From NCBI GenBank assembly GCA_022711355.1, contig JAKLFE010000015.1, forward strand, positions 1 to 64,000: DNA of 64,000 bases. Direction: 5' to 3'. Position 1 is the first letter of the stretch. Every line of letters begins with the position of its first letter. Positions 2,876 through 62,735 of this stretch are shown piece after piece. The notes below the pieces were generated by a model. It made no database searches, was not told the DNA's origin, and saw nothing but the letters and a program-made list of their open reading frames with translations. A program made the position numbers and the translations under genes. This DNA comes from Spirochaetota bacterium. GTDB taxonomy: Bacteria > Spirochaetota > Spirochaetia > Treponematales > Rectinemataceae.

Positions 2876-3793
2876 ATGCTACAACAGGGGGAGATGTTCG
2901 ATAAGATCTACCTCGAGATCACCAACGTCTGCAACCTCGCGTGCCCCTTCTGCCCGCCGCGCCGCAGGCCAGCGGGCTTCCTGTCCGCGGAGGACTTCGG
3001 GCTCTACCTCCGCGCCCTGGAAGGCTTCGGGAGGCAGCTGTACTTCCACGTGAAGGGCGAGCCCCTCCTCCACCCCGAGCTCGGCGGCTTCGTGGCCGCG
3101 GCCGGGGCCCGGGGCTTCGCCGTGAACCTGACGAGCAACGGGACCCTCCTGGCCGAGCGGGCGGGGATCCTCCTCGGGGCCAAGAACCTCCGCAAGCTGA
3201 GCGTCTCCCTCCACAGCGCCCCGGGCTCGCCCGGGCTCGAGGCCTACTGGCGGGGCCTCTCCTCCTTCCTCGACCAGCACCGCGAGCGCCCAGCCTTCCC
3301 CCTGAGCCTCCGGCTCTGGAGCCGCAGCTCGGGGCTCCTCCCGCCGGAGACGGAGGGGCTCTGGGAGCTCCTGCGCGGACGCTATCCCTCCTTGGGCGCC
3401 TGGGACTCCGCCGCCGAGCTGCCGGCCTCGATCGAGCTCGACCGCCGGGTCTTCCTCAACTCCGCCGAGCGCTTCGTCTGGCCCGACCCCGCCCTGCCCC
3501 AGGAAGGGGCCGAGGGCTTCTGCCGGGGCCTGGGCAACCAGATCGCCGTCCTCGTCGACGGCACCGTCCTGCCCTGCTGCCTCGACGGGGAGGGCCTCCT
3601 CGCCCTGGGGAACCTGCGCGAGCGGCCCTTGGCGGAGATACTCGCCTCGCCCCGGGCCCGGGCCATCCGCGAGGGCTTCGCGCGGCGGCTCCTCGTCGAG
3701 CCCCTCTGCCGGACCTGCGGCTACCGCAGGAGCGTCTCCTCCTGGGCGGGCCCCGGCTCGGGCCCCTCGGCGGGGAGGGGCTCGAGGAGGTAG
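2876..3793 (+). CDS. Radical SAM/SPASM-domain protein
   Basis: 305 residues. The N-terminal motif [13 protein letters not shown] carries CxxxCxxC, which binds the [4Fe-4S] cluster that cleaves S-adenosylmethionine. Later GEPLLHPE and LTSNGTLL match the core barrel. The C-terminal third has further cysteines ([25 protein letters not shown]) typical of a SPASM/Twitch auxiliary-cluster domain. These proteins usually modify peptides or enzymes, and the substrate here is unknown because no precursor peptide gene is seen nearby. Two in-frame ATGs are possible; the upstream one has GGAAG at 9 nt, while the downstream one has a GA-rich run directly abutting it. The last 24 codons overlap the convergent chemoreceptor gene. 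Confidence 0.82.
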
Positions 3794-5586
3794 CGCGCGA
3801 GGAGGGCCTCCACCGCCGCGATGGCCGCCTCGTTGCGGCGCGCGAGCTCGGTCACCGCCGCGGAGGCCGCCCCGATCTCGCCCATGCCGGACCCGATGGA
3901 GCCGGCCGCCTCCTTGAGGAGGGCGGTCGCCTCCTCGAGCTCGCCCATCTCCGCGCCGATGGCCTGGGAGCCCTCGCGCAGCTTCGCCGAGCCGGAGCGG
4001 ACCTGGGCCGTGACCTCGTTGATCGAGGCGAGGGACTCGAGGATGAGGCGCGAGCCTTCCCGCTGCTCCTCGAGCGCCCCGTTGATGCCGCGCTCGAGCT
4101 CGCTCACCCCCCGGATCCGCTCGCGCACCGCCCCGAAGGAGTCGCGGGCCACGGCGGCGCTCCCGACGGCCTCGTCGATCGAGCGGCGGATGCCCCCGAT
4201 GTCGCGCGTGATCTCCTTGGACTGGGCCGCCGCGCTCTCCGCCAGGCCGCGGATCTCGTCGGCCACGACGGAGAAGCCGCGGCCCGATTCTCCCGCGTGG
4301 GCGGCCTCGATCGCGGCGTTCATGGCCAGGAGGTTCGTCTTGGCCGCTATGTTCGAGACGACGGCGTTGGCCTCGCGGAGCCGGTCGGACTTGGAGGCGA
4401 CCTCGCCGATCAGGCCGGTCACCGTCTCGAGCTTGGAGCCGCCGTCCTCCGCGGAGGCGAGGAGGGCGGCGAAGCTCTCGCCGAGCCGCTCGACGCTCGC
4501 GGTCACCGACCTGATGCTGCCGATCATCTCCTCGATCGAGGAGGAGGAGGCCGAGACGCCCCGCGACTGGACCTCGATCTCGGCGTCCAGCGACTCGATG
4601 GTCAGGGCCATCTGCCGCACCGTCGCCGCGGTCTCCTCGACCCCCGCGCTCTGCTCGAAGGCCTGCCGGTTGACCGACTCGACGCCCTCCGTGATCCGGG
4701 CGAGGGCCCGGTCCGCGCTCTCCATGCTCTCCGCGAGGCGCTTGCCCACGGCCTCGAGCTCGGCGACCGAGGCCCCGATGGCCCGCAGGCTCCCGTCGAG
4801 GTCCGAGGCCATGGACGAGAGGGCGCGGAGGAAGTCGCCCAGCTCGTCGCCGCGCGCGGCCGAGCGGCCGTCGAGCCTGACGCCGAGGCGGCCCGAGGCG
4901 ATGGCGCGGGCCGCCTCGGCGGCCATGGCCAGGGGGGCGGCGAAGGACCGGGCCAGGGCCAGGCCGAGGGCGACCGAGACGGCGGCGCCCGCGAGGATGA
5001 AGCTCGCGATGACGAGGGAGGAGCGGGCGGCGGACGCGCGGCTCGCCTCGACGATCTGGGCGGCCCCCCCGGCGAGGAGGGCGGTGAGCTCGGCCGTCGT
5101 GTTCTCGAGGGCGGCGCCCGAGCTCCCCATGAGGATGGCCATGTTGCCCGCCGCCTCCCGGCCCCGCCCCGCCCTCGCCTCCTCGACCAGGCTGCCCAGG
5201 CTCGTCTCGAAATCCTTCCAGATGAAGCGGAGGGACTCCACGCTGCCCTTGGCCTCCTCGTCCTCGACCAGCTCGAGGAGGGCGGGGATCGCCTCGACGA
5301 TGCGGCGGCCCAGGCCCTCGAGCTTCGCCACGACCGCCTCGACCGCCTCGGGCCCCGAGGCCAGGACGAGGTCGCGCGCGAGTATCTGGACCTCGCGCAC
5401 GTCGCCGTAGAGGCCGAGGTAGGCCTCGAGGGGGGCGATGCTCCGCTCGGCCATGCGGGCGGACTGGCTCGAGAGCCTCGCGACGTAGACGATGCCCAGG
5501 AGGCCCATGGCCGCCCCGAGGGCGGCCACGGCGAGGAAGGCCGTGACGAGCTTCGCGCGTATCCTGAGGCCGCGGTTCCCCTTCAT
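3721..5586 (-). CDS. Methyl-accepting chemotaxis protein
   Basis: 621 residues, class with two membrane segments. TM1 is at about 11-35, a periplasmic helical sensor at 36-185, TM2 at 188-212, HAMP to about 262, then a long coiled-coil signalling domain. The hairpin tip ([17 protein letters not shown], about 430-447) that contacts CheA/CheW is fully conserved. The sensor region is helical, four-helix-bundle-like rather than Cache-like. The C-terminus lacks a CheR-binding pentapeptide. The start has GAGGAGG 6 nt upstream and is preceded by a strong TTGACC-N17-TATCAT promoter. The 3' end overlaps the convergent radical SAM gene by 73 bp. No other chemotaxis gene is in the window. Confidence 0.95.
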
Positions 5587-5821: not shown

Positions 5822-6898
5822 TTAGCCGGCCCGGCCGCCTTTCCCGCCCGGCGCCAGCCATGCCGGAAGGGCGAGCTTGAAGCCCCCCGCTCCGCGCAGC
5901 CACATGACGAGGCTCTGCAGCACGATGAAGACGCAGAGCAAAAGGCCGCTCACGATCGCCTGGAAGTTCGAGTTGACGCCGGCCGCCCGTATCAGCTCGT
6001 TGATCGTGAGGAGGGTCAAGGCGCCGACCGGCGAGCCGATCAGGTTCCCCACGCCGCCGGAGAGCATCGTGCCGCCGATGATGGATCCGGCGATCGCCTT
6101 CATCTCGAAGCCCGACGCGTTCCCGACGTTGCCGGCCCCGGTCGTCATGATGAACACGAAGCCCGCGACGCCGGAAAGCAGCCCGCACAGCGCGTATGAC
6201 GAGAACTTGGTCCTCCGCACGTTGATGCCGAGCATCAGCGAGCTCTGGCTGTTGCCGCCGACGGCGTAGAGATTGCGCCCGAAACGGGACCAATGCATGA
6301 GGACGGCGAGCGCGGCTATGAGCAGCGCCGCGACGAAGGTCCCGGGCTTCACCTCGAGGGGGATGAAATTCCCGAGCCGGTTCGTGGTGCCGAGCCAGGG
6401 AACCACCATGCTGTAATCCCGCAGGCGGACGAACTCCGCCATGGTCACGTTGAGCGGGTCCTTGTGGATGGTCGTCAAGAGGCCATTGGCCAGGAACATC
6501 CCCGCGAGCGTTATTATGAAGGGCTGGATTTCCAGGTAGGCGATGAGGAAGCCCTGCAGGAGGCCGAAGGCCAAGCCGATGCCCAGCGCCAGGAGCATCG
6601 AGCCCCCGACGCTCCCCCTCCCCGACTCCAGGAATACCGCGCAGCACATGGTCACGAGGCCGGTCACCGCGCCGACGGAGATATCGATGCCGCCCCCGAT
6701 CATGACGATGGAGAGGCCGAGGGTCAGGATGATGAGGGGGGCGTTCAGGTTGAACAGGTCGAAGAAGGTCTGGTACTGCAGGAAGCTGCGCGGGTACCGG
6801 AGGACGGCGAAGCCGTACATCAGCGCGAAGATGACCGCGGCGATGGCGAACAGGAGGTTCGAGTTGGATATCGTCTCTTTCCGCTTGATCGTGTTCAT
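5822..6898 (-). CDS. CUT2-family sugar ABC transporter permease (YjfF-like)
   Basis: 358 residues with about ten hydrophobic segments, of the ribose/galactofuranose permease family (BPD_transp_2). The family signature SIVMIGGGIDISVGAVTGL is present. It forms the membrane pore with the other permease and is energised by the fused ATPase. Its ATG overlaps the stop of the upstream permease as ATGA, implying translational coupling. It is the last gene of the operon, with a terminator after it. Length is close to E. coli YjfF plus about 25 residues of N-terminal cytoplasmic extension (MNTIKRKETISNSN). The sugar is not set by this gene. Confidence 0.93.
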   Translation of the reverse strand: MNTIKRKETISNSNLLFAIAAVIFALMYGFAVLRYPRSFLQYQTFFDLFNLNAPLIILTLGLSIVMIGGGIDISVGAVTGLVTMCCAVFLESGRGSVGGSMLLALGIGLAFGLLQGFLIAYLEIQPFIITLAGMFLANGLLTTIHKDPLNVTMAEFVRLRDYSMVVPWLGTTNRLGNFIPLEVKPGTFVAALLIAALAVLMHWSRFGRNLYAVGGNSQSSLMLGINVRRTKFSSYALCGLLSGVAGFVFIMTTGAGNVGNASGFEMKAIAGSIIGGTMLSGGVGNLIGSPVGALTLLTINELIRAAGVNSNFQAIVSGLLLCVFIVLQSLVMWLRGAGGFKLALPAWLAPGGKGGRAG

Positions 6899-7944
6899 CG
6901 CTGCCCCGCCTGGGCCGAGCCGCCGAGCCTGTCCCGCATCCATCTCGAGCCTCTCGCGGCGAATTGCCTGACCACCGGCGACGCGATCACCATGAGGATT
7001 ATTATGAACGCCGCCTTGAAGGCCTTGATCGTCTCGGTGTCCACCTCGAGCCGGAGCAGGGTCCGGTTCAGCACTTCTATGGTATACGCGCCGATGATGG
7101 AGCCGGCGATGCTGAACGTGCCCCCGCCGAGCGGGTTCCCGCCGATCGCCACCGCGAGGATCGCGTCCATCTCGACGTACTTGAGCAGGTTGACCGAGTC
7201 GTGCCGGCCGGCCTTGGTGACGGCGATGAAGCCCGCGACGGCGGAGCAGACGCCGAGGATCATGTAGGTCAGGAACTTGATCCGCACCGGATTGATGCCG
7301 TTGAGGCGCGCGGCCTTCTGGTTGATCCCCACGCACTGGGAGTAGAGCTTGAGGTTCGTGGTCCGGAGGAGGACCGCGAAGAGCGCGATGAAGACGGCGG
7401 TCAGGATAATAGGTGTTTGTATGGGCACCCCCGGTATCACGCTGCCGACCTGGCTCGTGAGGTCGTTCGCGAGGATGGGAGACAGCCTCCCGTCGATCAG
7501 GAACGCCACCGATCTCCCCGCGGTGAAAAGTATGAGGGTCGCGACCATGGGCTGGACCTTGAATACAGCGACCAGGGCGCCGTTGAAGGCTCCGATGGCG
7601 ATACCGACCGCGCAGCTCGCCAGGAAGGCCGCCAGTATGGCCGCCCAGGTGATCCCGCCGGAGCTCAAGAGCAGCCGGACGAAGACGCTGGAAGTGATGG
7701 CGCCAGCCACGCCGACCGATATGTCCTGGCCGCCCGACGACGAGGTGACCAGGGTCATGCCGATCGAAAGGATCACCAATTCCGAGGCGCCGAAGAGGAT
7801 GTTCGGTATGTTCCCGTACAGCGCCCCGTTGATGATCGAGATGCTGAAGTAATCGGCGCCCTTGATCAGGTTGATGAGGATCAGGATCGCCAGGACCGAC
7901 AAGGGGAGGAAGACCTGGAACCCGCGGCTCCGCATTCGGGCCAT
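6895..7944 (-). CDS. CUT2-family sugar ABC transporter permease (YtfT-like)
   Basis: 349 residues, polytopic, same family as the next gene, as expected for the two-permease heterodimer of YtfT/YjfF-type systems. The conserved loop reads GMTLVTSSSGGQDISVGVAGA, with the G-G-x-DIS-VG core. It starts 2 nt after the ATPase stop and ends in an ATGA overlap with the second permease. The C-terminal tail is basic (RGSRWMRDR). Having two distinct permeases rather than one homodimeric RbsC-like permease points to the galactofuranose-type subgroup. Confidence 0.93.
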   Translation of the reverse strand: MARMRSRGFQVFLPLSVLAILILINLIKGADYFSISIINGALYGNIPNILFGASELVILSIGMTLVTSSSGGQDISVGVAGAITSSVFVRLLLSSGGITWAAILAAFLASCAVGIAIGAFNGALVAVFKVQPMVATLILFTAGRSVAFLIDGRLSPILANDLTSQVGSVIPGVPIQTPIILTAVFIALFAVLLRTTNLKLYSQCVGINQKAARLNGINPVRIKFLTYMILGVCSAVAGFIAVTKAGRHDSVNLLKYVEMDAILAVAIGGNPLGGGTFSIAGSIIGAYTIEVLNRTLLRLEVDTETIKAFKAAFIIILMVIASPVVRQFAARGSRWMRDRLGGSAQAGQR

Positions 7945-7946
7945 GG

Positions 7947-9449
7947 CTACTCCCCCCCGCCGGCGATCACGTGCAGGACATCCCGTTCCGTCAAGCTCTC
8001 CCCGGAGAGCTCTCCCACGATCGCCCGGTCCTTCATGACGATCAGGCGGGAGCAGGTGCGGAGCATCTCCTCGATTTCGGAGGAGATGAAGGTCACGCTG
8101 ACCCCCTCCTCGGCGAGCTTGAGCACGAGCTTCTGGATCTCCACCTTGGTCCCGACGTCGATCCCCCGCGTGGGCTCGTCGAGGATCAGGTACTCGGGGT
8201 GGGTGAGCAGCCAGCGGGCGAGGATGACCTTCTGCTGGTTGCCGCCGGAGAGCGACTTGATGGGGGTGCTGGTGGACGCGGTCTTGATGTTCAGGCGCTC
8301 TATGTACTCGTCGGCGAAGGACTCCGCCTCTTTCCGGGAAAAGGGCTTGAAGAAGCCCTTCATGACCTGCAGGGCCAGGATGATGTTATCCCGGACGGAG
8401 AGCTCGGCGATGATGCCGTCGCCCTTGCGGTCCTCGGGAAGGTAGCCGATGCCCAGCTTCATCGCCTGTATCGGCTCGCCGATCCTGGCTTTCCTCCCAT
8501 GCACCTTGATCTCGCCGCCGGTCACCTTGTCCGCGGCGTAGATCGCCCGGACGCTCTCGCTGCGCCCCGAGCCGAGCAGGCCGGTGAAGCCGTTCACCTC
8601 GCCTTTCCGGATCGCGAAGTCGAAGGGCCGGACCCCCGCGGCGCTCGAGAGCCCCTGCGCCTCGAATACGGGCGCGCCGCCCTCGAGAGCGGGGACCTCG
8701 CGCTTCTTGATCTGCGAGACATCGTCCAGCGCCTTGCCCATCATCTTCGAGACGAGCTCGAGCTGGGGCAGCGAGGAGGCGTCGTAGTCGCCGATGAACT
8801 CCCCGTTGCGGAGCACTGTGATCCGGTCCGAGATCTCGTAGACCTGGTCGAGGAAGTGGGTCACGAAGACGATGCCCACGCCACGCGATTTCAGCTCGCG
8901 CATGAGGGAGAAGAGCTTCCGCACCTCGTCCTCGTCCAGGCTGGAGGTGGGCTCGTCGAGGATGAGGATCCTGCAGTCCATATCGATCGCGCGGGCGATC
9001 GCGATCATCTGCTGGACGGCGAGCGAGCAGCTGGAGAGCTGCTGGGTCGGCCGCGCCGGGATGCCGAGCGAGTCCAGGAGCCGCGCCGTCTTCTCCCTCA
9101 TCCCCTTCCAATCGACGAAGGCGTAGCGGCCTCGGCCGATGAACATGTTCTCCGCGACCGTCAGGTTGTGGCAGAGGCTTATCTCCTGATAGACGGTGCC
9201 GACCCCGAAAGCCTGGGCGTCCTGGGGAGACCGGAAATGCATGGCCTTCCCCTCCACCGTTATCTGGCCCGAGTCTTTTTCGTAGACCCCGGTCATGACC
9301 TTTATGAGCGTGGACTTCCCCGCCCCGTTCTCGCCCATGAGGGCGTGGACCTCGCCTGAGCGGAGCGTGAAGCTCACGTCATGGAGGGCCCTGACCCCGG
9401 GGAACGACTTGCAGATGCCCCGCATTTCCAGCACATTCGGCGTTTGCAA
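7947..9449 (-). CDS. CUT2-family sugar ABC transporter ATP-binding protein (YtfR-like)
   Basis: Two fused ABC domains. The first has Walker A GENGAGKST and Walker B ILILDEPTSSLD. The second has the usual degenerate P-loop GLLGSGRSE, signature LSGGNQQKV and Walker B YLILDEPTRGID, as in RbsA/YtfR. I choose a TTG start: GGGAGAGAAG lies just upstream and gives 500 residues, the same length as E. coli YtfR. A GTG 16 codons further upstream would sit inside an intergenic hairpin. It powers import with the two downstream permeases. It is separated from the binding-protein gene by a stem-loop. Confidence 0.93.
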   Translation of the reverse strand: MQTPNVLEMRGICKSFPGVRALHDVSFTLRSGEVHALMGENGAGKSTLIKVMTGVYEKDSGQITVEGKAMHFRSPQDAQAFGVGTVYQEISLCHNLTVAENMFIGRGRYAFVDWKGMREKTARLLDSLGIPARPTQQLSSCSLAVQQMIAIARAIDMDCRILILDEPTSSLDEDEVRKLFSLMRELKSRGVGIVFVTHFLDQVYEISDRITVLRNGEFIGDYDASSLPQLELVSKMMGKALDDVSQIKKREVPALEGGAPVFEAQGLSSAAGVRPFDFAIRKGEVNGFTGLLGSGRSESVRAIYAADKVTGGEIKVHGRKARIGEPIQAMKLGIGYLPEDRKGDGIIAELSVRDNIILALQVMKGFFKPFSRKEAESFADEYIERLNIKTASTSTPIKSLSGGNQQKVILARWLLTHPEYLILDEPTRGIDVGTKVEIQKLVLKLAEEGVSVTFISSEIEEMLRTCSRLIVMKDRAIVGELSGESLTERDVLHVIAGGGE

Positions 9450-9483
9450 TTGCTTCTCTCCCGACGCAGTATACACAATAATC

Positions 9484-9522
9484 GCGGTGCGGCGCACCGG
9501 ATTCCTCCGAACGCCGCACCGC
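9484..9522 (-). promoter_or_regulatory. Stem-loop between binding-protein and ATPase genes
   Basis: Perfect 11-bp inverted repeat (9484-9494 with 9512-9522) and a 17-nt loop, with no following U-run. In CUT transporters such hairpins protect the binding-protein message and reduce read-through, giving more binding protein than membrane parts. That role is inferred. Confidence 0.6.
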
Positions 9523-9557: not shown

Positions 9558-10538
9558 TCACTTCGTGATCACGCCCTTGCCGGGGTCGGCGTTGATGCCC
9601 TTCTCGGCGATGAGCTTGTCGGTGATCGTGGCGGTATCGGCGATGATCTCCTTCTGGAAGACCTTCCCCGTGGGAGCCTTCTTGCCGGCCTTGATCCAGG
9701 TCGCGATCTCGGCGGCCTGGCGGGGGCTGCACTGGACGTCGCAATCCCAGTAGCCGGCCTGCACGTTGCGCAGCGCGAAGCGGTTGAAGTCGAAGCCGAT
9801 TATCTTGACCTTGCCGCCCTTGCCGTGGCTGATGCCGGCCGCGTCGAGGGCCTGGACGGCGCCCTGGGCCATGCCGTCGTTCTCCGCGTAGATGACGTTG
9901 AAATCCTTGCCGGCGGTGATCGCGGCCTCGACCACCTTGCGGGCCTCCTCGAGGCTCCAGCTGTCGCCGCCGGTCCCGTCGGCCACGATCTTGAGCTTGC
10001 CGGCGTCGCGGGCCTTGAGCAGGGCGCCCGAGCGGCCGAGCTCGGCCGCGGAGCCCAGCTGGCCGCGGATGAGGATCACGTTGTAGCTGGCGAGCTTCTG
10101 CTTCAGCAGCCAATTCACGGCGTTCTCGCCCTCGGCGGCCATGTCCGAGACGAGAGCCGCCCGGTAGTTCGCGGCGTCGGTGTCGATGAGGCGGTCGAAG
10201 AGGAAGACCGTCACGCCGGCCTTCTTCGCGGACTGCAGCACGTTGTCCCAGCCGGAGGCGTTCGCGGCCGAGATCAGGAGGTAGTCCACGCCGTCGCGGA
10301 TGTAGCCCTGGGCCGCGGCGATCTGCTCGCTGTTGTCGCCGGTGTTGGTCTGCTTCGCGTCGTAGCCGTTCGCCTTCGAGAAGACATTGTTCATGTCCTC
10401 GACGTTGGCCTGCCGGTAGCCGGACTCCTCGGGGGGCAGGTTGACGATGCCCACCTTGATCGCGGGAGCGGCGAACGCCGCGCCGACCGCCGCCAGCAGC
10501 ACGAGAACCGTCAATACCGTCTTCGCTCGAAATGCCAT
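9558..10538 (-). CDS. Periplasmic sugar-binding protein of the CUT2 transporter
   Basis: 326 residues with a classic signal peptide (TVLTVLVLLAAVGAAFA / APAIKVG). Periplasmic-binding-protein type 1 fold: VGIVNLPPEESGYRQ, LLISAANASGWDNVLQ, FLFDRLID, IYAENDGMAQGA and IIGFDFNRFALR are the sugar-binding segments of the ribose/galactofuranose group. It delivers substrate to the permease pair encoded downstream. The ATG has GGAGGT 7 nt upstream. It is the first gene of the transporter operon, with a long AT-containing leader carrying palindromes. The ligand cannot be read from sequence; YtfQ-like features favour a furanose or galactose-type sugar. Confidence 0.92.
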   Translation of the reverse strand: MAFRAKTVLTVLVLLAAVGAAFAAPAIKVGIVNLPPEESGYRQANVEDMNNVFSKANGYDAKQTNTGDNSEQIAAAQGYIRDGVDYLLISAANASGWDNVLQSAKKAGVTVFLFDRLIDTDAANYRAALVSDMAAEGENAVNWLLKQKLASYNVILIRGQLGSAAELGRSGALLKARDAGKLKIVADGTGGDSWSLEEARKVVEAAITAGKDFNVIYAENDGMAQGAVQALDAAGISHGKGGKVKIIGFDFNRFALRNVQAGYWDCDVQCSPRQAAEIATWIKAGKKAPTGKVFQKEIIADTATITDKLIAEKGINADPGKGVITK

Positions 10539-10585: not shown

Positions 10586-10769
10586 CGCCGCGCATCGGCC
10601 GATCCGCCGTCCGGGCCCGGGCCGGGCCTCGCCCGGCTCTCCGCCTTAGCCCTCGCTCCTGTCTATTTCAAACCCGTTTCGCCAAACGCGCTTTAGACAA
10701 ATCGGTTTTTTAGGGCACTATTCGAGGATGGCCGAGGGGACGAATGAAGGAAACGAAGACGCAAGGAAT

Positions 10770-10872
10770 AAACCACAGAGGCACAGAGGCACAGAGTTAA
10801 GAGAAGAGAGGAGAGTGAATTCCAACCCTTTCCCTATTTCTCTGTGCCTCTGTGCCTCTGTGCCTCTGTGGA
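10770..10872. repeat. Palindromic CACAGAGG-repeat element, copy A
   Basis: Left arm (10771-10796) is made of CCACAGAGG and GCACAGAGG units, the right arm (10839-10871) of TCTGTGCC octads. They are separated by about 40 nt of purine-rich then pyrimidine-rich DNA. The arms can pair into a long hairpin. Related elements lie at about 47.97, 50.45 and 62.51 kb. It sits between the ends of two transcription units and has lower GC than its flanks. Confidence 0.85.
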
Positions 10873-10902
10873 CTATTCGCCGTAGCGGGCCGTGTCTCGG
10901 CC

Positions 10903-12786
10903 TTAGTACTCCCTGCCGATCATGTCCCTGCGGGCGGTCGCGGCCGTGAAGACGCCCTCGGAGGTGATCATCCGGATGGGCAGGTCCTTGCCCGCCATGT
11001 AGTCCTGCACGGCCTTCATCAGCTGGGGACCGAGGATGGGGTTGCATTCCACGGAGCAGTTCATCTCGCCGGCCGCCATGGCCTTGAAGGCGTCCTTGAT
11101 CCCGTCGACCCCGACGATGACGATATCCCTGCCGGGCTTGAGGCCCCGCTCCTTTATCGCCTGGATCGCGCCGATCGCCATATCGTCGTTGTGCGAGAAG
11201 ACGGCGTCGATCCTCCGGCCCTCGGCGGCGAGGATGCCCTTCATCACCGAGTATCCCTGGGCGCGGAAGAAGTCGCCCGACTCAGAGGCGATGATGCGGT
11301 AGCTCGGGCGGTCCCTGATCACTTCCTCGAAGCCCAGCTTCCGGTCGATCGTGGGGGCCGAGCCGGGATTCCCCTGGAGCTCCACGATGTTCACCTCGTC
11401 CCGGTCCTTCAGGGTCTCGACGAGCCAGCGGGCGGCGCGGCGCCCCTCCTCGACGAAGTCCGAGCCCATGAAGGAGAGCCAGAGGGAGTCGTCCTTGAGG
11501 CCGATCCTCCGGTCCGTGAGGATGACCGGGATGCCCGCCTCCTTGGCCTCGCGCAGCACCTCGTCCCAGCCGGAATCCACCACGGGGGAGAAGGCGATGA
11601 CGTCGACCTTGCGCGCGATGAAGGAGCGGATCGCCGCGATCTGGTTACCCTGGAGCTGCTTGCCGTCCTCGAACAGGAGCTCGATGCCTGCCTTGGCCGC
11701 GGCGCTCTTGATCGACTTGGTGTTGGCGACGCGCCACTCGCTCTCGGCGCCCACCTGGGCGAAGCCGAGGACGATGGGCCCGCGCCGGGGCGAAGCGCCG
11801 GGGCCGGCCCGGGCCTCGCTCGAGGCTCCCCCGGCCAGGGACTCGCCGGTGACCAGGCGGGGCCTGAGGTAGATCTTCTTGGGGATGCCCTCCTTCTTCA
11901 GGAGGAGGTCCATGGCGTAGCCCACGGCTTCCTTGCCCCCCGTGGGGCAGGTGAAGGTGGCGGAGAGGATGCCCTTGCGGACGAGCTCGATGCCGCCCAT
12001 CGGGCCGGGCAGGCCGTCGATGCCGATGAAGGCGGTCCCCGCCCGGCCCGCGGCGCGGAAGGCGCGCCAGGCCCCGTAGGCCATCGCGTCGTTCTGGGCG
12101 AAGACCGCGTCGACCGGCGGCAGGGAGGGGCCCCGGGCCGCGAGCTCGTCCTCGGCCCGGTCGCGGAGCCAGTCCGCGACGATGGGCTCGAAGAGCCGCA
12201 CGTCGGCCCGCTTGCCGATCTCCTCGCGGAAGCCCGAGCTCCGCTCGAGGGAGGGCGGAGAGCCGGAGCGCCCCTCGATCTCGAGGACGTTCCCGCCCCG
12301 CCGGCCGAGGAGCCCGGAGGCGACGCGCCCCGCCTCGCGGCCGAGGCGCTCGTTGTCCGGCCCGATGAAGAGCGTGTAGTCGTAGCCCTCGACGGCCCGG
12401 TCGAGGACGATGACCGGTATCCTCGCGTAGGCCTCCCGCACGATCGGGGTCAGGGCCCCGGCCTCGGTGGGGGACACGATGAGGAGGTCGATGCCGAAGC
12501 CCATGAGCCGCCTGACGTCCTCGATCTGCCGGGCGCTCGAGTCGGCGGCGTCGGCGTAGATCATCCGCAGCCGCCGCTGCCGGCCGGCCTCCTCGCGGAT
12601 CTCCTCGGTCATGGCGACGCGCCAGGGCTCGGTGAGGTTGGCCTGGGAGACGCCGACGAGGAAGCGCCCGTCCGCGTCCGAGCGCGCGGCGCGGCCGCAG
12701 GAGGGGAGGAGCGCCGCGAGGGCGGCCAGGGCAAGGGCGCCTAACGCGCTCCTGAGCGCCGCGGCGGGCGGGGAGGCGCGGCTCAC
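10903..12786 (-). CDS. Lipoprotein with two tandem periplasmic sugar-binding domains
   Basis: 627 residues. The N-terminus (LGALALAALAALLPSC) is a lipoprotein signal ending in a lipobox cysteine. Domain 1 (about 40-312) is a type-1 periplasmic binding fold (FLVGVSQANLTEPWR, LLIVSPTEAGALTP, VIVLDRAVEG, VFAQNDAMAYGA, FIGIDGLPGP). A roughly 20-residue Ala/Gly/Pro/Arg linker follows. Domain 2 (about 333-627) closely resembles the galactofuranose-binding protein YtfQ (VLGFAQVGAESEWRVANT, FSPVVDSGWDEVL, VELQGNPGSA, HNDDMAIGAIQAIK). The GTG start overlaps the response-regulator stop as GTGA. I infer a sensor that presents sugar occupancy to the kinase, as XylFII does for LytS/YesN, but doubled. It could instead be a high-capacity transporter binding protein. 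Confidence 0.88.
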   Translation of the reverse strand: MSRASPPAAALRSALGALALAALAALLPSCGRAARSDADGRFLVGVSQANLTEPWRVAMTEEIREEAGRQRRLRMIYADAADSSARQIEDVRRLMGFGIDLLIVSPTEAGALTPIVREAYARIPVIVLDRAVEGYDYTLFIGPDNERLGREAGRVASGLLGRRGGNVLEIEGRSGSPPSLERSSGFREEIGKRADVRLFEPIVADWLRDRAEDELAARGPSLPPVDAVFAQNDAMAYGAWRAFRAAGRAGTAFIGIDGLPGPMGGIELVRKGILSATFTCPTGGKEAVGYAMDLLLKKEGIPKKIYLRPRLVTGESLAGGASSEARAGPGASPRRGPIVLGFAQVGAESEWRVANTKSIKSAAAKAGIELLFEDGKQLQGNQIAAIRSFIARKVDVIAFSPVVDSGWDEVLREAKEAGIPVILTDRRIGLKDDSLWLSFMGSDFVEEGRRAARWLVETLKDRDEVNIVELQGNPGSAPTIDRKLGFEEVIRDRPSYRIIASESGDFFRAQGYSVMKGILAAEGRRIDAVFSHNDDMAIGAIQAIKERGLKPGRDIVIVGVDGIKDAFKAMAAGEMNCSVECNPILGPQLMKAVQDYMAGKDLPIRMITSEGVFTAATARRDMIGREY

Positions 12787-13982
12787 GAGGCGGGCCCCTT
12801 GCGATGGTCGGTCGGGGTGGTGCCCGTCACCTTCTTGAAGGCGCGGCTGAAGTAGTGCTGGCTCCGGTAGCCGACCCGCTCCGCCACCTCGAAGGCCTTG
12901 GCCGCGGGGTCGCTCATGAGGACGGCGGCCTTCCGCACCCGGATCCGGTTCAGGTACTCGACGAAGGAGAAGCCCGTCTCGCGCTTCATGAGCCGCGAGA
13001 GGTAGCCGGGGCTGATCTGGAGCTCGGCGGCGGCGTCCTCGAGGCAGAGCTCGGGGTTCCAGTAGTGCTTGTCGACGTAGTTGCGCGCGAGGACCACGAA
13101 GGCCTCGCAGTTGTCGCCGTCGGCGAGCTCGGCGCGGAGCTCGTCGTAGGCGTCGCAGATCCCCGCGGCCGGGTCGGGGACCGCCCGCGTCGCCACCGAG
13201 GGCGACTGGAAGACCTGCTCCCCCGCGCGCCGCTCGACCTCGCCCGCCGCGTCGGCGAGCCGGGCCTCGGGGAGGGCCGGGGCCAGGGCGAGGAGGGTCT
13301 CGGTCTCGTCCTCGAAGACGTAGGTCCCCGCCGGCAGGGCCTCCTCGAGGAGGGTGCGCAGGGCCACGAGGGCGAGGCGGCGGCTCCGCTCCCCGCCGGC
13401 CGAGCCTGAGGGCGAGCGCTCGGGGAAGCGGGCCGCGACGAGGGTCGAGGGCGAGGAGAGCTCGATCCGGAGGAAGGACAGGCCCTCGAGGACCTCGGTC
13501 CGCGAGAGCGAGCCGGAGACCCAGTCCTTGAGGAAGCGCTCGCGGAGCACGGGCAGGTTGCGCTCCAGCTGCTCCCTGGCCCAGGCCGCGTACTTGCCGT
13601 CCTCCTTCCGCGACTCGAGCTCGGCCGCGGCCCGCTCGATCACCGCGACGAAGCTCTCGGCGTCGACGGGCTTGAGCACGTAGTCGAAGACCCGGAGCTT
13701 GACCGCGGCCTGGGCGTACTCGAACTCGTCGTGGCCGGAGACGATGATGAAGATCCGCCCGGGCAGGGCCGCGTTGATCTCCTCGATGAGCTCGAGGCCG
13801 TTCTTGAAGGGCATCCGCACGTCGACGAGGAGGATGTCGGGCTCGTGCTCGAGGGCCAGCTCGTAGGCCAGCTCCCCGTCCTCGGCCTCGGCGACCACCT
13901 CGAGGTCCCGGCACCTCCCGACGAGGGAGCGCAGGCCCCGCCTGATCTTGGGCTCGTCGTCGGCTATCAGCACCTTCCACAT
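12783..13982 (-). CDS. Response regulator with AraC-type DNA-binding domain (YesN-like)
   Basis: 399 residues. The receiver domain (1-120) has the acidic pocket ADDEP, phospho-acceptor Asp in LLVDVRMP (about 54), Thr/Ser switch in IIVSGHDE and Lys in VLKPVD. A variable middle region (about 130-290) joins it to a C-terminal AraC/XylS double helix-turn-helix (LCLEDAAAELQISPGYLSRLMKRE and EVAERVGYRSQHYFSRAFKK). It should be phosphorylated by the kinase encoded 3 nt upstream and activate sugar-uptake genes, probably the CUT2 operon next door. It ends in a GTGA overlap with the tandem binding protein, so the three are co-expressed. Confidence 0.93.
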   Translation of the reverse strand: MWKVLIADDEPKIRRGLRSLVGRCRDLEVVAEAEDGELAYELALEHEPDILLVDVRMPFKNGLELIEEINAALPGRIFIIVSGHDEFEYAQAAVKLRVFDYVLKPVDAESFVAVIERAAAELESRKEDGKYAAWAREQLERNLPVLRERFLKDWVSGSLSRTEVLEGLSFLRIELSSPSTLVAARFPERSPSGSAGGERSRRLALVALRTLLEEALPAGTYVFEDETETLLALAPALPEARLADAAGEVERRAGEQVFQSPSVATRAVPDPAAGICDAYDELRAELADGDNCEAFVVLARNYVDKHYWNPELCLEDAAAELQISPGYLSRLMKRETGFSFVEYLNRIRVRKAAVLMSDPAAKAFEVAERVGYRSQHYFSRAFKKVTGTTPTDHRKGPAS

Positions 13983-13985
13983 GTC

Positions 13986-15800
13986 CTAGTCCTCCGAACC
14001 GATGACCGGATGGCGGATCGTGACCTCGGTGCCCTCGCCCAGGCCGCTCCGGAAGGAGAGGCCGTAGGGCTTGCCGAAGGTCAGCCTGATCCGCTCGTGC
14101 ACGTTGCGGATCCCGTAGCCCCCGAGGTAGCCCTCGCCCCCCCCTTCCAGGGAGGCGTTGAGCCGGGCGACGAGGGCCGCGTCCATGCCGACCCCGTCGT
14201 CGCGCACGGCAAGGAGGAGCTCGGGGCCGGACTCCCCCCGCTCGAGCCTCCCGGTCACCGAGAGGCTGCCCGAGCCCCGCCGCTCCTTGATCCCGTGGTA
14301 GATGGCGTTCTCGACGAGGGGCTGGAGGACGAGGCGCAGGACGCGCAGGCCCCGCAGCCCCTCCTCGACGGAGACCGAGTAGTCGAACTTGTCCTCGTAG
14401 CGCATCTTCTGGATGCAGAGGTAGCTCCGCACGTGCTCGAGCTCGTCGGTGAGGGAGATGATCTCGCGGCCCTTGGACAGGCCGATGCGGAACAGGCTCG
14501 TCAGGGCGCCGACCATGGTGACCACGTCCTCGACGCGGTGCTCCTGGGCCATCCACTGGATCGTGTCGAGGGTGTTGTAGAGGAAGTGGGGCTTGATCTG
14601 CTCCTGCAGGATTCGGAGCTCGGCCTCGCGCTTGGACTGCTGCTCGGAGTAGACCTGGTCGATGAGGCTCTGGATCCGCTCGATCATCTCGTTGAAGCCC
14701 AGGCCCAGCTCGGCGATCTCGTCCCCGCCCTTCCCTGCGAAGCGGACGGCGAGGTCGCCCTGCTCGACGCGCTTCATGAGGCTGCGCAGGCGGAGAACGG
14801 GCTTGGCGACCGAGGAGGTGAAGAAGATGGCGGCCACGATCGCGAGGGCCATGGTCAGGCCGCCAATGAGGAAGGTCCAGTACTTGACGAGGCTCACCTC
14901 CTTGAGCGTCTCGTCGAGCGAGAAGACCCCGACCGTCCTCCAGCCGGTATAGGCCGACTCCTGGGCGAGGACCTGGTAGTCCGCGCCGGCGACCCGGACC
15001 GCGGCCGCGCCGTCCTCGAGGGCCTCGAGGGGGACGCGATAGACGACCTCGTTCACGGGGGCGTAGACCATCTCCCCCGAGCCGTCGGCTATGAACAGGA
15101 AGCCGGCCTTGCCGAGGGCCGCGTCCTTGAACAGCTCCTCGATGGAGGAGAGCTTCATGTCGACGAGGACGGCGCCGCGCACGGCCCCGTCCCGGGCCCC
15201 GGTGACCGCCTTCACGACGGAGACGACCTCGTCGGCCCCGTAGCGCCGCGTGCTCCGGATGTTCCGGCCGATGGGCCTGGCCATGAGGCGGACCTGGCCC
15301 GGGGCCCCGCGGGCCTCGGCGTACCAGCGCTCGTCGGCGAGGCTGTCGCGGGTGGTGCGCGAGAAGCCCTCGCTCTCCCAGGCCCCGCGCTCGGTGACGA
15401 CCAGGAGGCCGGCGATCTCCGGGTGGGTGGCGACGACGGCGGAGACCGCCTCCCGGATGGCCGCCCGCCCGGCCTCGGAGGCCTCCCCGCCCTCGAGGAA
15501 GGCGGCCACCGCGCCGGTCCTCGCGACCAGGTCGATGAGCTTCTCCATCTCCTGGACGCGGAGCTCGATGTTCATCGTGACCTGGCTGATCATGCGGCCG
15601 GTGTGGGCCATGGTCTCGCGCTCGATGGAGGTCGCGTAGAGGGAGGGGCCGATGACGCCGAGGGTGACGAGGGGGAGGGCGAGGATGAGGAGGAAGTAGA
15701 CCATCAGCTTGAGCCGGAGGCTGAGGGACCTGGCCCTCAGCGTCGAAGGCCCGGCCGGGGCGGGGAAGGGGCCGGGCCCCAGGGCTGCCTGAGCTTCCAT
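13986..15800 (-). CDS. Membrane sensor histidine kinase (YesM/LytS type)
   Basis: 604 residues. TM1 at about 30-52, a large extracytoplasmic dCache-like sensor (to about 300), TM2 at about 307-327, HAMP, then the His_kinase domain with EQIKPHFLYNTLD (phospho-His about 403) and an HATPase domain with NAIYHGI, DDGVGM and GYGIRNVHERI. The partner regulator starts 3 nt downstream. The extracytoplasmic domain is the natural docking site for the lipoprotein binding protein of the same operon. Weak Shine-Dalgarno. A TAGAAT -10 box and a perfect palindrome lie just upstream; a GTG inside the palindrome is a less likely alternative start. Confidence 0.93.
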   Translation of the reverse strand: MEAQAALGPGPFPAPAGPSTLRARSLSLRLKLMVYFLLILALPLVTLGVIGPSLYATSIERETMAHTGRMISQVTMNIELRVQEMEKLIDLVARTGAVAAFLEGGEASEAGRAAIREAVSAVVATHPEIAGLLVVTERGAWESEGFSRTTRDSLADERWYAEARGAPGQVRLMARPIGRNIRSTRRYGADEVVSVVKAVTGARDGAVRGAVLVDMKLSSIEELFKDAALGKAGFLFIADGSGEMVYAPVNEVVYRVPLEALEDGAAAVRVAGADYQVLAQESAYTGWRTVGVFSLDETLKEVSLVKYWTFLIGGLTMALAIVAAIFFTSSVAKPVLRLRSLMKRVEQGDLAVRFAGKGGDEIAELGLGFNEMIERIQSLIDQVYSEQQSKREAELRILQEQIKPHFLYNTLDTIQWMAQEHRVEDVVTMVGALTSLFRIGLSKGREIISLTDELEHVRSYLCIQKMRYEDKFDYSVSVEEGLRGLRVLRLVLQPLVENAIYHGIKERRGSGSLSVTGRLERGESGPELLLAVRDDGVGMDAALVARLNASLEGGGEGYLGGYGIRNVHERIRLTFGKPYGLSFRSGLGEGTEVTIRHPVIGSED

Positions 15801-15904: not shown

Positions 15905-17113
15905 CTAGGCCATGAGCCGCCGGATCAGGGCCGCGCAGTCGGCCTCGTCCATGATGCGGGGCACGGGGTAGAGGGGGTTGGCCTCGCGGAGGGCGCGCCG
16001 CGCGAGGAGGGGGATATCCTCCTCCTTGATCTGGGCGAACTTCGAGGGGATGGACATGCGCGCGTTCATGGCGCGGATCTCGGCTATGAAGGCCTCCGCC
16101 TTGGCCGCCTCGTCCAGGCCCGCGCAGGGCAGGCCGGCGAGCTCGGCCAGGGCGGCCAGCCGCGCCTGGGCCGCGCCCCCGAAGTAGTCGAGGACGTAGG
16201 GCAGGATGACGGCGTTCGCCAGGCCGTGGGGCAGGCCGTAGAGGCCCCCGAGGTTGTGGGCTATGGCGTGGACGTAGCCGACGTAGGCCCGGGTGAAGGC
16301 CACGCCGCCGCAATAGGAGGCCAGGAGCATGTTGGAGCGGGCCTCGAGGTTCGAGCCGTCGCGGTAGGCGGCCTCGAGGTTGGCGAAGACGAGCCTGACG
16401 GCCTTCTCGGCCATGGCGGCGGTGTTCCTCGTGTTGCTCCGGCCGACGTAGGCCTCCACCGCGTGGGTCAAGGCGTCCATGCCCGTGGCCGCGGTGATCG
16501 GGGCGGGGAGCTTGACCGTGAGCTCGGGGTCGAGGACGGCGTAGGGGGGGATGAGCTTGGGGTCGTTGATCGCGTACTTCTCGTGGGTCTCGGGATCGGT
16601 GACCACGGCGGCCAAGGTGGTCTCCGAGCCCGTGCCCGCGGTCGTCGGGACGGCGAAAAGGAGGGGCGGCCGCCGGGCCACCTTGAGCAGGCCCCGCATC
16701 TTCCGAACGCTCCTGCCCGGGTTCGCGACCCGGGCCCCGGCCGCCTTGGCGCAGTCCATGGACGAGCCGCCGCCGAAGGCCACGATGGCCTGGCAGCCCC
16801 GTTCCTCGTAGAGGGCCCGGGCCTCCTCGATGTTCGGGATGGTCGGGTTGGCCTGGACCCCGTCGTAGAGCTCGTAGGCGACGCCCGCCGCCTCGAGCTC
16901 CCCGAACAGGCCGTCCAGGAGGCGGAAGGCCATGAGGCCCTTGTCGGTCACGACGAGGACCTTGCGTATGCCCTTGGCGGCGATGAAGGCAGGGAGCCGA
17001 CGGACGCTGCCGGGCCCCTCGAGGAGCTCCGGCTGGGAGAAGTCGAGGAAGCAGCTGGCCGCCCGCATGACGGCCTGGTAGGTCCTGTACCACAGATGCC
17101 GGAGCTTCGCCAT
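15905..17113 (-). CDS. Iron-containing alcohol dehydrogenase
   Basis: 402 residues of the Fe-ADH family (NAD(P)-dependent oxidation of an alcohol or reduction of an aldehyde, cytoplasmic). The nucleotide-binding motif is FGGGSSMDCAKA. The family signatures PTTAGTGSE and GMDALTHAVEAYV are followed by HAIAHNLGGLYGLPHG, which supplies the three histidine metal ligands; Asp of the second motif is the fourth. The start is set by AAGGGAGGA 6 nt upstream, trimming eight codons. A TATGAT -10 box lies about 65 nt upstream without a clear -35. It is a single-gene unit. The substrate is unknown; butanol, lactaldehyde or 1,3-propanediol dehydrogenases all share these motifs. Confidence 0.92.
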   Translation of the reverse strand: MAKLRHLWYRTYQAVMRAASCFLDFSQPELLEGPGSVRRLPAFIAAKGIRKVLVVTDKGLMAFRLLDGLFGELEAAGVAYELYDGVQANPTIPNIEEARALYEERGCQAIVAFGGGSSMDCAKAAGARVANPGRSVRKMRGLLKVARRPPLLFAVPTTAGTGSETTLAAVVTDPETHEKYAINDPKLIPPYAVLDPELTVKLPAPITAATGMDALTHAVEAYVGRSNTRNTAAMAEKAVRLVFANLEAAYRDGSNLEARSNMLLASYCGGVAFTRAYVGYVHAIAHNLGGLYGLPHGLANAVILPYVLDYFGGAAQARLAALAELAGLPCAGLDEAAKAEAFIAEIRAMNARMSIPSKFAQIKEEDIPLLARRALREANPLYPVPRIMDEADCAALIRRLMA

Positions 17114-17226
17114 CGGCTTCCTCCCTTCGTCGCTCAACGCGCGCCGCTCGAGGCGCGGGGCGCGGATCGCTCGCCATCATAGCACGGCTCCGGCCGCCGC
17201 GGTTTTTTTTTCAAAGCGGCCTCGGC

Positions 17227-48097: not shown

Positions 48098-48916
48098 TCA
48101 GGCCGAGGAGGCGCGGTAGGCGGCGGGGCTCTCGCCCCTGAGCCGCGCGAAGGTCCGGCTGAAGTGCGGACGGTCGGAGAAGCCCAGCTCCTCGGCAATC
48201 TCCTCGATGGTCGAGTCCGTGTGCCGGAGCATGATGCAGGCCTCGTCGATCCTGATCCTGAGCGAGTAGGCATGGAGCGAGAGCCCGACCTGGGCGCGCA
48301 TGGCGCGCTCGAGGCTGGGCACGCTCATGCCCAGCTCGCGGGCGAGCTCAGCGTTCGAAGGCGGGCTCGCGAGCGAGGCCCGCACCGCGGCGGCCACCCG
48401 GGCCGCGAGCTCCCCGCCCTCCGCCGAGCCGGGCAGGCGCGAGGAAGGGAAGGCGGCGAGTCGGCCGTAGATCAGGCCTGCGGCCAGGAGGGAGGCCTTG
48501 GCCCTCGGCGCGCCGTCGCCCGCCGCGCCGAGCCGGGCCCGATCCGGGCCGCCCGCGAGGCCCTCCGCCGCGTCGGCCAGCGCGCGCAGGGCTGCCAGCT
48601 CGGCCCGCGAGGCGCTCGCGGCGAGCACGCAGGGCTCGGCCCGGTCGAAGGGGGGCCCCGCGAGGAAATGGACGTAGAGGTGGTCCATGGGCGATTCGGC
48701 GCGGGCCGAGAAATGGGTCTCGGGCGGGATGAGGAGGACCCTCGGCCCCTCGAGCGCGTAGCGCTTCCCGCCGAGGCCCAGCCTCCCCCGCCCCGCCGCG
48801 TTCCAGTACAGGCGCCAGAATGGGGCGGCGCAGTCGGGATAGTCCCAGATGGACAGGCCCGCGGCGAAATCGACGAGGACGATCTTGAGCGCGGGCAGGG
48901 GAAAGGCCTCTCTCAT
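48098..48916 (-). CDS. AraC-family transcriptional regulator
   Basis: 272 residues. The N-terminal half is a cupin-like sensor (GLSIWDYPDCAAPFWRLYW, GPRVLLIPPETHFSARAESPMDHLYVHF), typical of sugar-responsive AraC regulators. The C-terminal double helix-turn-helix has NAELARELGMSVPSLERAM and TIEEIAEELGFSDRPHFSRTFARLRGESPAAYR. It is divergent from the GH29 fucosidase gene, which it probably activates. The start codon is 6 nt after a perfect TATAAT and has no Shine-Dalgarno, so the mRNA is probably leaderless. Confidence 0.93.
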   Translation of the reverse strand: MREAFPLPALKIVLVDFAAGLSIWDYPDCAAPFWRLYWNAAGRGRLGLGGKRYALEGPRVLLIPPETHFSARAESPMDHLYVHFLAGPPFDRAEPCVLAASASRAELAALRALADAAEGLAGGPDRARLGAAGDGAPRAKASLLAAGLIYGRLAAFPSSRLPGSAEGGELAARVAAAVRASLASPPSNAELARELGMSVPSLERAMRAQVGLSLHAYSLRIRIDEACIMLRHTDSTIEEIAEELGFSDRPHFSRTFARLRGESPAAYRASSA

Positions 48917-48922
48917 GAGCCG

Positions 48923-48928
48923 ATTATA
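48923..48928 (-). promoter_or_regulatory. TATAAT box of the AraC regulator gene, predicted leaderless
   Basis: Perfect -10 consensus on the minus strand ending 6 nt before the ATG. The -35 region is an AT run (TATATATA) rather than TTGACA. Confidence 0.55.
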
Positions 48929-48954
48929 CCTAGGTTTTGATCAATATATATATA

Positions 48955-48995
48955 GCTATCGACCTGGCGCTGGTATTGAATATGCATACGATAGC
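48955..48995. promoter_or_regulatory. Inverted repeat in the araC/fucosidase divergent region
   Basis: GCTATCG (48955-48961) and CGATAGC (48989-48995), with the 8-bp palindrome TATGCATA (48981-48988) between them. It is a candidate site for the adjacent AraC regulator, just upstream of the fucosidase Shine-Dalgarno. Confidence 0.35.
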
Positions 48996-49013
48996 CGTAT
49001 CCAGGGAGGGCCT

Positions 49014-50449: not shown

Positions 50450-50567
50450 ACAACAGAGGCACAGAGAAGAGGGAGAGGAAGAAAGGAAAAGAGCAGGCGC
50501 CCCATCCTCATCCCGTTTGTATTCTCTTCTTTCTTCCCTCTGTGTCTCTGTGCCTCTGTGGCTTATC
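50450..50567. repeat. Palindromic CACAGAGG-repeat element, copy C
   Basis: Left arm CAACAGAGGCACAGAGAAG (50450 onward) and right arm with CCTCTGTGTCTCTGTGCCTCTGTGG (50537 onward, given here in part), separated by about 70 nt of purine-rich then pyrimidine-rich sequence. Same family and intergenic setting as copies A and D. Confidence 0.8.
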
Positions 50568-52253: not shown

Positions 52254-52275
52254 TCGATGCCTCCTTATCCGATGC

Positions 52276-52294
52276 GCGCCCGCGTCGCGGGCGC
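52276..52294 (-). promoter_or_regulatory. Hairpin between permease and binding-protein genes
   Basis: GCGCCCGCG/CGCGGGCGC arms (52276-52284 and 52286-52294) just upstream of the binding-protein Shine-Dalgarno. Possibly a processing or stability element. Confidence 0.4.
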
Positions 52295-52352
52295 GATGAA
52301 TCACAGGTTGCGCGATATAAACGTCGGCCGCGATGATCCGGCCGGTTACGCG

Positions 52353-62510: not shown

Positions 62511-62735
62511 TAAACCACAGAGGCACAGAGACACAGAGTTAAGAAAAGAGAGTATGGATTATCATCCTTTCCTCTCTCTTTCTTCTCTGTGCCTCTGTGC
62601 CTCTGTGCCTCTCTTCCATTCTCTTCTTCCTTCTCTTCCTCTCCCTCTCCCTCCGTGCCTCACTTCCATTTTTCCTTCTTTCTTCTTTCCTCTCCCTCTC
62701 CCCTCTGTGCCTCTGTGGTTTAAAAATCCCCGGTC
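62511..62735. repeat. Palindromic CACAGAGG-repeat element, copy D (expanded)
   Basis: Left arm from 62514 with CCACAGAGGCACAGAG units. The right side is expanded: a first TCTGTGCC octad array near 62587-62612, a pyrimidine-only stretch, a degenerate CTCCGTGCCTC near 62650, and a terminal CTCTGTGCCTCTGTGGTTT near 62703-62722. The outer ends (AAACCACAGAGGCACAGAG / CTCTGTGCCTCTGTGGTTT) are perfect inverted repeats. Confidence 0.88.

What the first reader, a model, noticed from the sequence alone, without database searches (positions are those of the whole stretch)
10903..15800. Three-component sugar sensor with a tandem double binding-protein lipoprotein
The operon encodes a membrane histidine kinase with a large extracytoplasmic domain, an AraC-type response regulator and a lipoprotein in which two complete type-1 sugar-binding domains are fused (about 40-312 and 333-627). 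Domain 2 is clearly YtfQ-like and domain 1 is a distinct, more divergent binding fold. Single-domain versions are known as accessory sensors (XylFII with LytS/YesN). A covalent pair could read two sugars, or act as an AND/ratio gate, and hand this to one kinase. It sits directly beside a matching CUT2 transporter that has its own binding protein.
Basis: partly seen in the sequence, partly recalled or inferred. Interest (0 to 1): 0.78.

Follow-up and report, generated by a model that had tools for sequence, protein, structure and literature searches.

The report
Double sugar-binding lipoprotein sensor operon
A spirochaete operon encodes a three-part sugar sensor whose binding protein is two sugar-binding proteins fused in tandem; the same layout recurs in other spirochaetes and in two groups of Bacillota, where one half appears to belong to the kinase and the other to read the sugar that a neighbouring transporter imports.

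Summary
On the minus strand, a dCache-HAMP histidine kinase, an AraC-type response regulator and a 627-residue lipoprotein with two complete type-1 sugar-binding domains form one tight operon beside a CUT2 transporter.

Relatives show a conserved, apparently undescribed variant of the solute-binding-protein three-component sensor (XylFII-LytS-YesN, CuaDSR, GanPST). Fused homologues occur in Spirochaetota, Negativicutes and Paenibacillales. All with enough upstream sequence (40 of 40, plus the window and four more) follow kinase and regulator directly.

D1 is 40% identical to the BT1754 fructose-sensor domain and tracks the kinase: kinases with D1, fused or single, form one clade, and sensor-domain divergence follows D1, not D2. 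D2 is a sensory GafA/YtfQ paralogue with a conserved furanose pocket. The pockets decay independently: D1's is altered in Paenibacillus, D2's in one spirochaete copy. In the window both look intact.

Best model: D1 is the membrane-proximal coupling domain; D2 reads a furanose sugar, probably L-arabinofuranose. Two-input logic is possible here but unproven and cannot be general. The window's transporter is not the one beside the other fused sensors; its close relatives lie next to arabinose genes.

The parts
13986..15800 (-). Sensor histidine kinase (P0002): TM, dCache sensor domain (about residues 60-295), TM, HAMP, YesM-type His_kinase/HATPase_c
   Evidence: Pfam; AF2 and Foldseek (dCache folds; kinase domain nearest GanS 6swj); alignment A2
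12783..13982 (-). Response regulator with AraC-type HTH (P0003)
   Evidence: Pfam
10903..12786 (-). Double sugar-binding lipoprotein (P0001), lipobox LPSC, Cys30
11851..12669 (-). Domain 1 (residues 40-312), BT1754-like; pocket E53 W55 R56 S105 D129 R130 R182 W206 N232 D257
11782..11850 (-). Interdomain linker (residues 313-335), low pLDDT at 321-330
   Evidence: linker 21-32 residues across homologues
10906..11781 (-). Domain 2 (residues 336-627), sensory GafA/YtfQ clade; pocket W351 R352 D425 R426 R482 F506 N533 D561
9558..10538 (-). Solute-binding protein of the adjacent transporter (P0004), distant YtfQ relative
7947..9497 (-). CUT2 ATPase, YtfR-like (641 bits; equivalog cut-off 850 not met)
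6895..7944 (-). CUT2 permease 1, best NCBIfam match YtfT
5822..6874 (-). CUT2 permease 2, best NCBIfam match YjfF
10766..10878 (.). Inverted-repeat element (8-bp CACAGAGG units) between sensor operon and transporter; 87 matches of its core genome-wide; probably not part of the sensor
15905..17137 (-). Iron-containing alcohol dehydrogenase upstream of the kinase; probably not part of the sensor

Best explanation
The operon is a three-component sugar sensor with a two-headed binding protein. The lipoprotein is anchored at its N-terminus outside the cytoplasmic membrane, with D1 next to the anchor and D2 distal. D1 (BT1754-like) docks on the kinase's dCache domain and is the domain through which the signal enters the kinase. 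D2 is a sensory relative of GafA-type binding proteins that binds a furanose sugar, most likely L-arabinofuranose (alternatively D-galactofuranose), and changes how D1 sits on the kinase; in spirochaetes D1 may also bind a sugar of its own. The kinase phosphorylates the AraC-type regulator, which most likely activates the adjacent CUT2 transporter genes. Shown by sequence: the genes, the two domains, the conserved operon, the pocket conservation and the clade structure. Inferred: contacts, ligands, direction of control and target promoter.
For: 1) Operon conservation: 40/40 fused homologues with enough flank, plus window and L230-L233, follow HK-RR directly. 2) Kinases with D1, fused or single (L203-L205), form one clade (SH-aLRT 96) that excludes kinases whose operons have D2-type binding proteins but no D1 (L207, L208, L254, L255, L258). 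3) HK sensor-domain distances follow D1 after removing RR and kinase-domain distances (partial r 0.48, 0 of 2000 permutations as high) but not D2 (r -0.09). 4) D1's closest solved relative is the sensor domain of the kinase BT1754, which binds fructose (PMC3404733). 5) Fused D2s form one clade (98-99) within GafA, separate from transporter GafAs, with the GafA pocket kept apart from conservative changes; solved GafAs bind L-Araf or D-Galf (PMC10191376). 6) Unfused counterparts: L206/L207 encode HK-RR-SBP-D2like as separate genes before GafABCD. 7) Arabinose links: relatives of the window transporter lie by araA or araB, spirochaete GafA by araB/araD, a Paenibacillus-order fused locus by a GH127 beta-L-arabinofuranosidase; araA is in this genome.
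Against: No physical interaction or ligand was tested, and no complex prediction was possible. The distance correlation rests on 23 operons, and all operon proteins co-diverge, so rows are not independent. D1's sugar is unknown; 40% identity to BT1754 does not prove fructose. The kinase's own dCache domain could bind a ligand directly. The window transporter is non-orthologous to the one the family normally accompanies, so D2's sugar and the transported sugar could differ here. Pocket mapping rests on RbsB numbering recalled from memory and on alignment.
Confidence: 0.6

Rival explanations
1. Dual-input gate: D1 and D2 bind two different sugars (or two ring forms of one sugar) and the kinase fires on the combination.
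For: Both pockets look intact in the window and most other spirochaetes. D1 is nearest a fructose sensor and D2 nearest furanose-binding GafA. Two separate binding-protein genes per kinase occur in L206/L207 and probably L208. Single-D1 operons go with a different CUT2 whose binding protein is D1-like (L204, L205).
Against: D1's pocket is substituted in most Paenibacillus-order homologues and D2's in L202 while the fusion persists, so two ligands are not required by the architecture. No ligand data.
Confidence: 0.25
2. Range extension: both domains bind the same sugar at different affinities, widening the dynamic range of one sensor.
For: Both are type-1 monosaccharide folds with aromatic and D-R/R/N/D pocket residues in the window.
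Against: The pockets differ (RbsB F164 position W in D1, F in D2; N13 position E in D1, S in D2), and the two domains belong to different clades.
Confidence: 0.1
3. The double protein delivers sugar to the transporter, like tandem substrate-binding domains of some transporters, and the kinase link is secondary.
For: D2 is a GafA relative and a CUT2 transporter is adjacent.
Against: The transporter keeps its own binding protein in the window and in the other loci where that part of the operon is in view; fused D2 is a clade apart from transporter GafAs; the fused gene follows HK-RR wherever that could be checked.
Confidence: 0.05

Closest known systems
XylFII-LytS-YesN (Clostridium beijerinckii) and CuaDSR (Ruminiclostridium cellulolyticum)
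   Same: Accessory binding protein + membrane kinase + AraC-type regulator beside the transporter they control; CuaD is a predicted lipoprotein that binds the kinase's extracellular domain (PMC10384115)
   Different: One binding domain; the window protein has two of different clades, with evidence that they have different jobs
GanPST / AraPST (Geobacillus stearothermophilus)
   Same: Three-component sugar sensors; the window kinase domain is nearest solved GanS (6swj); an arabinose cluster with binding protein, kinase, AraC regulator and ABC genes is tabulated in PMC4428132. The role of AraPST is from memory
   Different: Single binding protein; sequence relation of AraP to D1 or D2 not tested
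BT1754 hybrid two-component fructose sensor (Bacteroides thetaiotaomicron, PDB 2X7X)
   Same: Its periplasmic type-1 domain is the closest solved relative of D1 (40% identity)
   Different: There the domain is part of the kinase polypeptide; here it is on a separate lipoprotein and fused to a second binding domain
GafA/YtfQ of the GafABCD transporter
   Same: D2 is 46-51% identical to solved GafAs with the same pocket
   Different: D2 is in a clade apart from transporter GafAs and scores below the NCBIfam YtfQ cut-off (409 vs 510)
LuxPQ (from memory)
   Same: A type-1 binding protein docks on a tandem-PAS/dCache-like kinase sensor domain
   Different: Single binding protein; not tested here

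Membership tests
SBP-dependent three-component sensor (XylFII/CuaD type) | Kinase with extracytoplasmic sensor domain | tested here: met
   dCache-HAMP-His_kinase
SBP-dependent three-component sensor (XylFII/CuaD type) | AraC-type response regulator in same operon | tested here: met
SBP-dependent three-component sensor (XylFII/CuaD type) | Membrane-anchored binding protein encoded with the kinase | tested here: met
   lipobox; conserved operon. Many homologues show no lipobox Cys but a hydrophobic N-terminus
SBP-dependent three-component sensor (XylFII/CuaD type) | Adjacent sugar ABC transporter with its own binding protein | tested here: met
   relatives
SBP-dependent three-component sensor (XylFII/CuaD type) | One binding domain per accessory protein, as in described members | tested here: not met
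   two domains; hence filed as a variant
SBP-dependent three-component sensor (XylFII/CuaD type) | Binding protein contacts the kinase sensor domain and ligand changes kinase activity | not testable with these tools
   only indirect:
GafA/YtfQ binding protein (D2) | Falls within GafA family by tree and fold | tested here: met
GafA/YtfQ binding protein (D2) | GafA pocket residues | tested here: met
GafA/YtfQ binding protein (D2) | NCBIfam YtfQ equivalog cut-off | tested here: not met
   409 vs 510 bits; so D2 is called GafA-like, not GafA
BT1754-type kinase sensor domain (D1) | Homologous fold and pocket | tested here: met
BT1754-type kinase sensor domain (D1) | Domain covalently part of a hybrid kinase | tested here: not met
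   D1 is on a separate lipoprotein
GafABCD transporter (window CUT2) | Orthologous to the GafABCD beside other fused sensors | tested here: not met
   54/34/38% for ATPase and permeases against 69-82% among near relatives

The most novel reading that the evidence does not exclude
In spirochaetes, where both pockets look intact, the lipoprotein is a true two-ligand integrator: D1 and D2 bind different sugars, or the pyranose and furanose forms of one sugar, and one kinase computes on both; in Paenibacillus one input has been lost and the same scaffold has become a single-input sensor with a vestigial coupling domain.
Probability: 0.25. Interest if true: 0.72.

Novelty: new variant of a known kind. 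Interest (0 to 1): 0.52.

Why it matters
As far as the searched papers show, three-component sugar sensors are described only with a single binding domain. This family seems to separate the two jobs of such a protein, contacting the kinase and reading the sugar, onto two fused domains, and evolution has disabled one pocket or the other in different lineages. That gives natural mutants for asking how an occupied binding protein switches a kinase, and a modular scaffold in which the reading domain might be exchanged. It also suggests a testable ligand for a set of unannotated kinases.

Tried and rejected
A first alignment failed on frames and was redone. The idea that D2 arose by recent duplication of the neighbouring binding protein in each lineage was rejected: fused D2s are one clade apart from transporter GafAs. 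Whether the unfused D2-like genes of L206-L208 belong with fused D2 is unsettled: inside that clade, outside. Literature searches for a fused double-SBP sensor found none in the open library. The repeat at 10766-10878 was considered as a regulator-binding site and rejected because it is a genome-wide repeat.
Full report
WHAT IS THERE. On the minus strand the window encodes, in order, a histidine kinase (15800..13986), an AraC-type response regulator (13982..12783) and a 627-residue lipoprotein (12786..10903). The kinase and regulator genes are separated by a few nucleotides, and the lipoprotein start overlaps the regulator stop by 4 nt. Pfam gives dCache_1-HAMP-His_kinase-HATPase_c, Response_reg-AraC and two Peripla_BP_4 stretches. 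About 360 nt further on begins a CUT2 transporter: binding protein P0004, ATPase and two permeases. AlphaFold2 models the lipoprotein at mean pLDDT 87.4 and pTM 0.84, with a disordered linker at residues 321-330; the high pTM hints at a fixed relative orientation of the domains, but I could not inspect coordinates. Foldseek's best hits are GafA/YtfQ structures, which by sequence match D2, and the BT1754 fructose-sensor domain 2X7X, which by sequence matches D1. The kinase model has a dCache sensor domain, and its kinase domain is nearest GanS of Geobacillus.

HOW CONSERVED IT IS. Fused D1-D2 homologues were found in Spirochaetota (5 of 393 genomes in a phylum sample, 11 of 344 in an order sample), in the class of Pelosinus (16 of 250 full-length, one more cut by a contig end) and in the order of Paenibacillus validus (17 of 298), and 16 in a scan of species genomes. 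Some genomes recur between these sets. In the alignment, 33 homologues are 47-71% identical to the window protein. Of 45 fused open frames examined (window included), 40 have both regulator and kinase directly upstream on the same strand; three show the regulator but lack the kinase because the contig ends, one is cut within D1 by a contig end, and the fifth flagged frame is the window itself, checked by hand. L230-L233 have the same order. A broader sample of the phylum of P. validus gave only that genome, so the family is patchy.

D1 BELONGS WITH THE KINASE. Single-domain D1 proteins occur in HK-RR-D1 operons in two Paenibacillus-order genomes and one spirochaete (L204, L205, L203). In a tree of kinases, all D1-associated kinases, fused or single, form one clade (SH-aLRT 96), while kinases accompanied by D2-type proteins without D1 lie outside. 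In 23 operons the divergence of the kinase sensor domain follows D1 after removing regulator and kinase-domain distances (partial r 0.48, 0 of 2000 permutations as high) and does not follow D2 (r -0.09). D1 is also the N-terminal, anchor-proximal domain in every fused homologue; some anchors are lipoboxes, others look like uncleaved hydrophobic N-termini. These are indirect lines and none shows contact.

D2 READS A GAF-TYPE SUGAR. Fused D2s form one clade (98-99) inside the GafA family but apart from transporter GafAs. Their pocket keeps W351, R352, D425, R426, R482, N533 and D561 in all 34 rows, with F506 a Tyr in two. Binding-site residues are identical across solved GafAs that bind L-arabinofuranose or D-galactofuranose (PMC10191376). 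Supporting context: spirochaete GafA genes beside ribulokinase and L-ribulose-5-phosphate epimerase (L212), a GH127 beta-L-arabinofuranosidase by a Paenibacillus-order fused operon (L185), and relatives of the window transporter beside L-arabinose isomerase or ribulokinase (L255, L256). This genome has an L-arabinose isomerase elsewhere; no ribulokinase reached its cut-off, but the genome is 79% complete.

THE TWO POCKETS DECAY INDEPENDENTLY. D1's pocket (E53 W55 R56 S105 D129 R130 R182 W206 N232 D257) is complete in the window and in the other spirochaete rows except the distant L201; N232 is Ser in many Negativicutes; in 8 of 11 Paenibacillus-order rows five positions are changed (W55R, R56Q, D129G, R182T, N232S) and in the other three D129 is Gly. 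Conversely L202, in a spirochaete that also holds a second fused gene (L046), keeps a recognisable D1 but a degenerate D2, and its neighbour is a different, ChvE-like binding protein by eye. So two ligands are not required for the architecture to persist. The simplest reading is a coupling domain plus a reading domain. A genuine two-input sensor remains possible where both pockets are intact, as in the window.

UNFUSED COUNTERPARTS. L206 and L207 carry HK-RR, then a divergent binding protein, then a separate D2-like binding protein, then GafABCD; L208 has a similar set split around the transporter. In spirochaetes the P0004-type transporter can be flanked by a single D2-like lipoprotein plus HK and RR (L254, L255, L258). 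Pairing of one kinase with two binding proteins is therefore not unique to the fusion. Whether the L206-L208 proteins are closest to fused D2 is unsettled (inside that clade, outside).

THE WINDOW'S TRANSPORTER IS DIFFERENT. Near relatives carry an orthologous GafABCD (69-83% to L037 for all subunits in L031, L032, L230), whereas the window's ATPase and permeases are only 54, 34 and 38% identical to it and its binding protein is not of that clade. The window transporter instead matches a set found in other spirochaetes at 72-90%. A genome-wide inverted repeat lies exactly between the sensor operon and the transporter, which is compatible with a swap there but does not show it.

COMPARISON WITH WHAT IS KNOWN. 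It works like XylFII-LytS-YesN and CuaDSR (PMC10384115) and fits their testable features except the single binding domain. No description of a fused double-SBP three-component sensor turned up in the open papers searched, with the caveat that subscription journals are mostly missing. I file it as a new variant of a known kind.

Noticed in passing
window 10766-10878, 50546-50560, 62516-62717: Inverted-repeat elements built of 8-bp CACAGAGG units, 87 matches to the 15-base core in this genome and none for the reversed control; about 11 units in tandem on contig C53. Looks like a REP/MITE-type family.
   Followed up: partly
L202:4585-6327: Natural variant with a degenerate second domain and a different neighbouring transporter, in a genome that also has a second fused gene (L046).
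   Followed up: partly
L254, L255, L258: P0004-type CUT2 operons divergent from a single D2-like lipoprotein-HK-RR set; araA nearby in L255.
   Followed up: yes
L200:8193-9024 (same locus as L037): D1 of this otherwise 76-85% identical homologue is split between two reading frames; sequencing error or pseudogene not decided.
   Followed up: no
window 54302-56662 (-): Membrane protein of 786 aa that seems to join an extracytoplasmic sensor to an AraC HTH, beside a CUT1-like transporter (50580-54202); by eye only.
   Followed up: no
window 48849-50327 (+): Protein resembling a GH29 alpha-L-fucosidase, by eye only.
   Followed up: no
window 3721-5586 (-): Methyl-accepting chemotaxis protein downstream of the transporter (Pfam); MCP genes also lie near several Negativicutes fused operons.
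   Followed up: no
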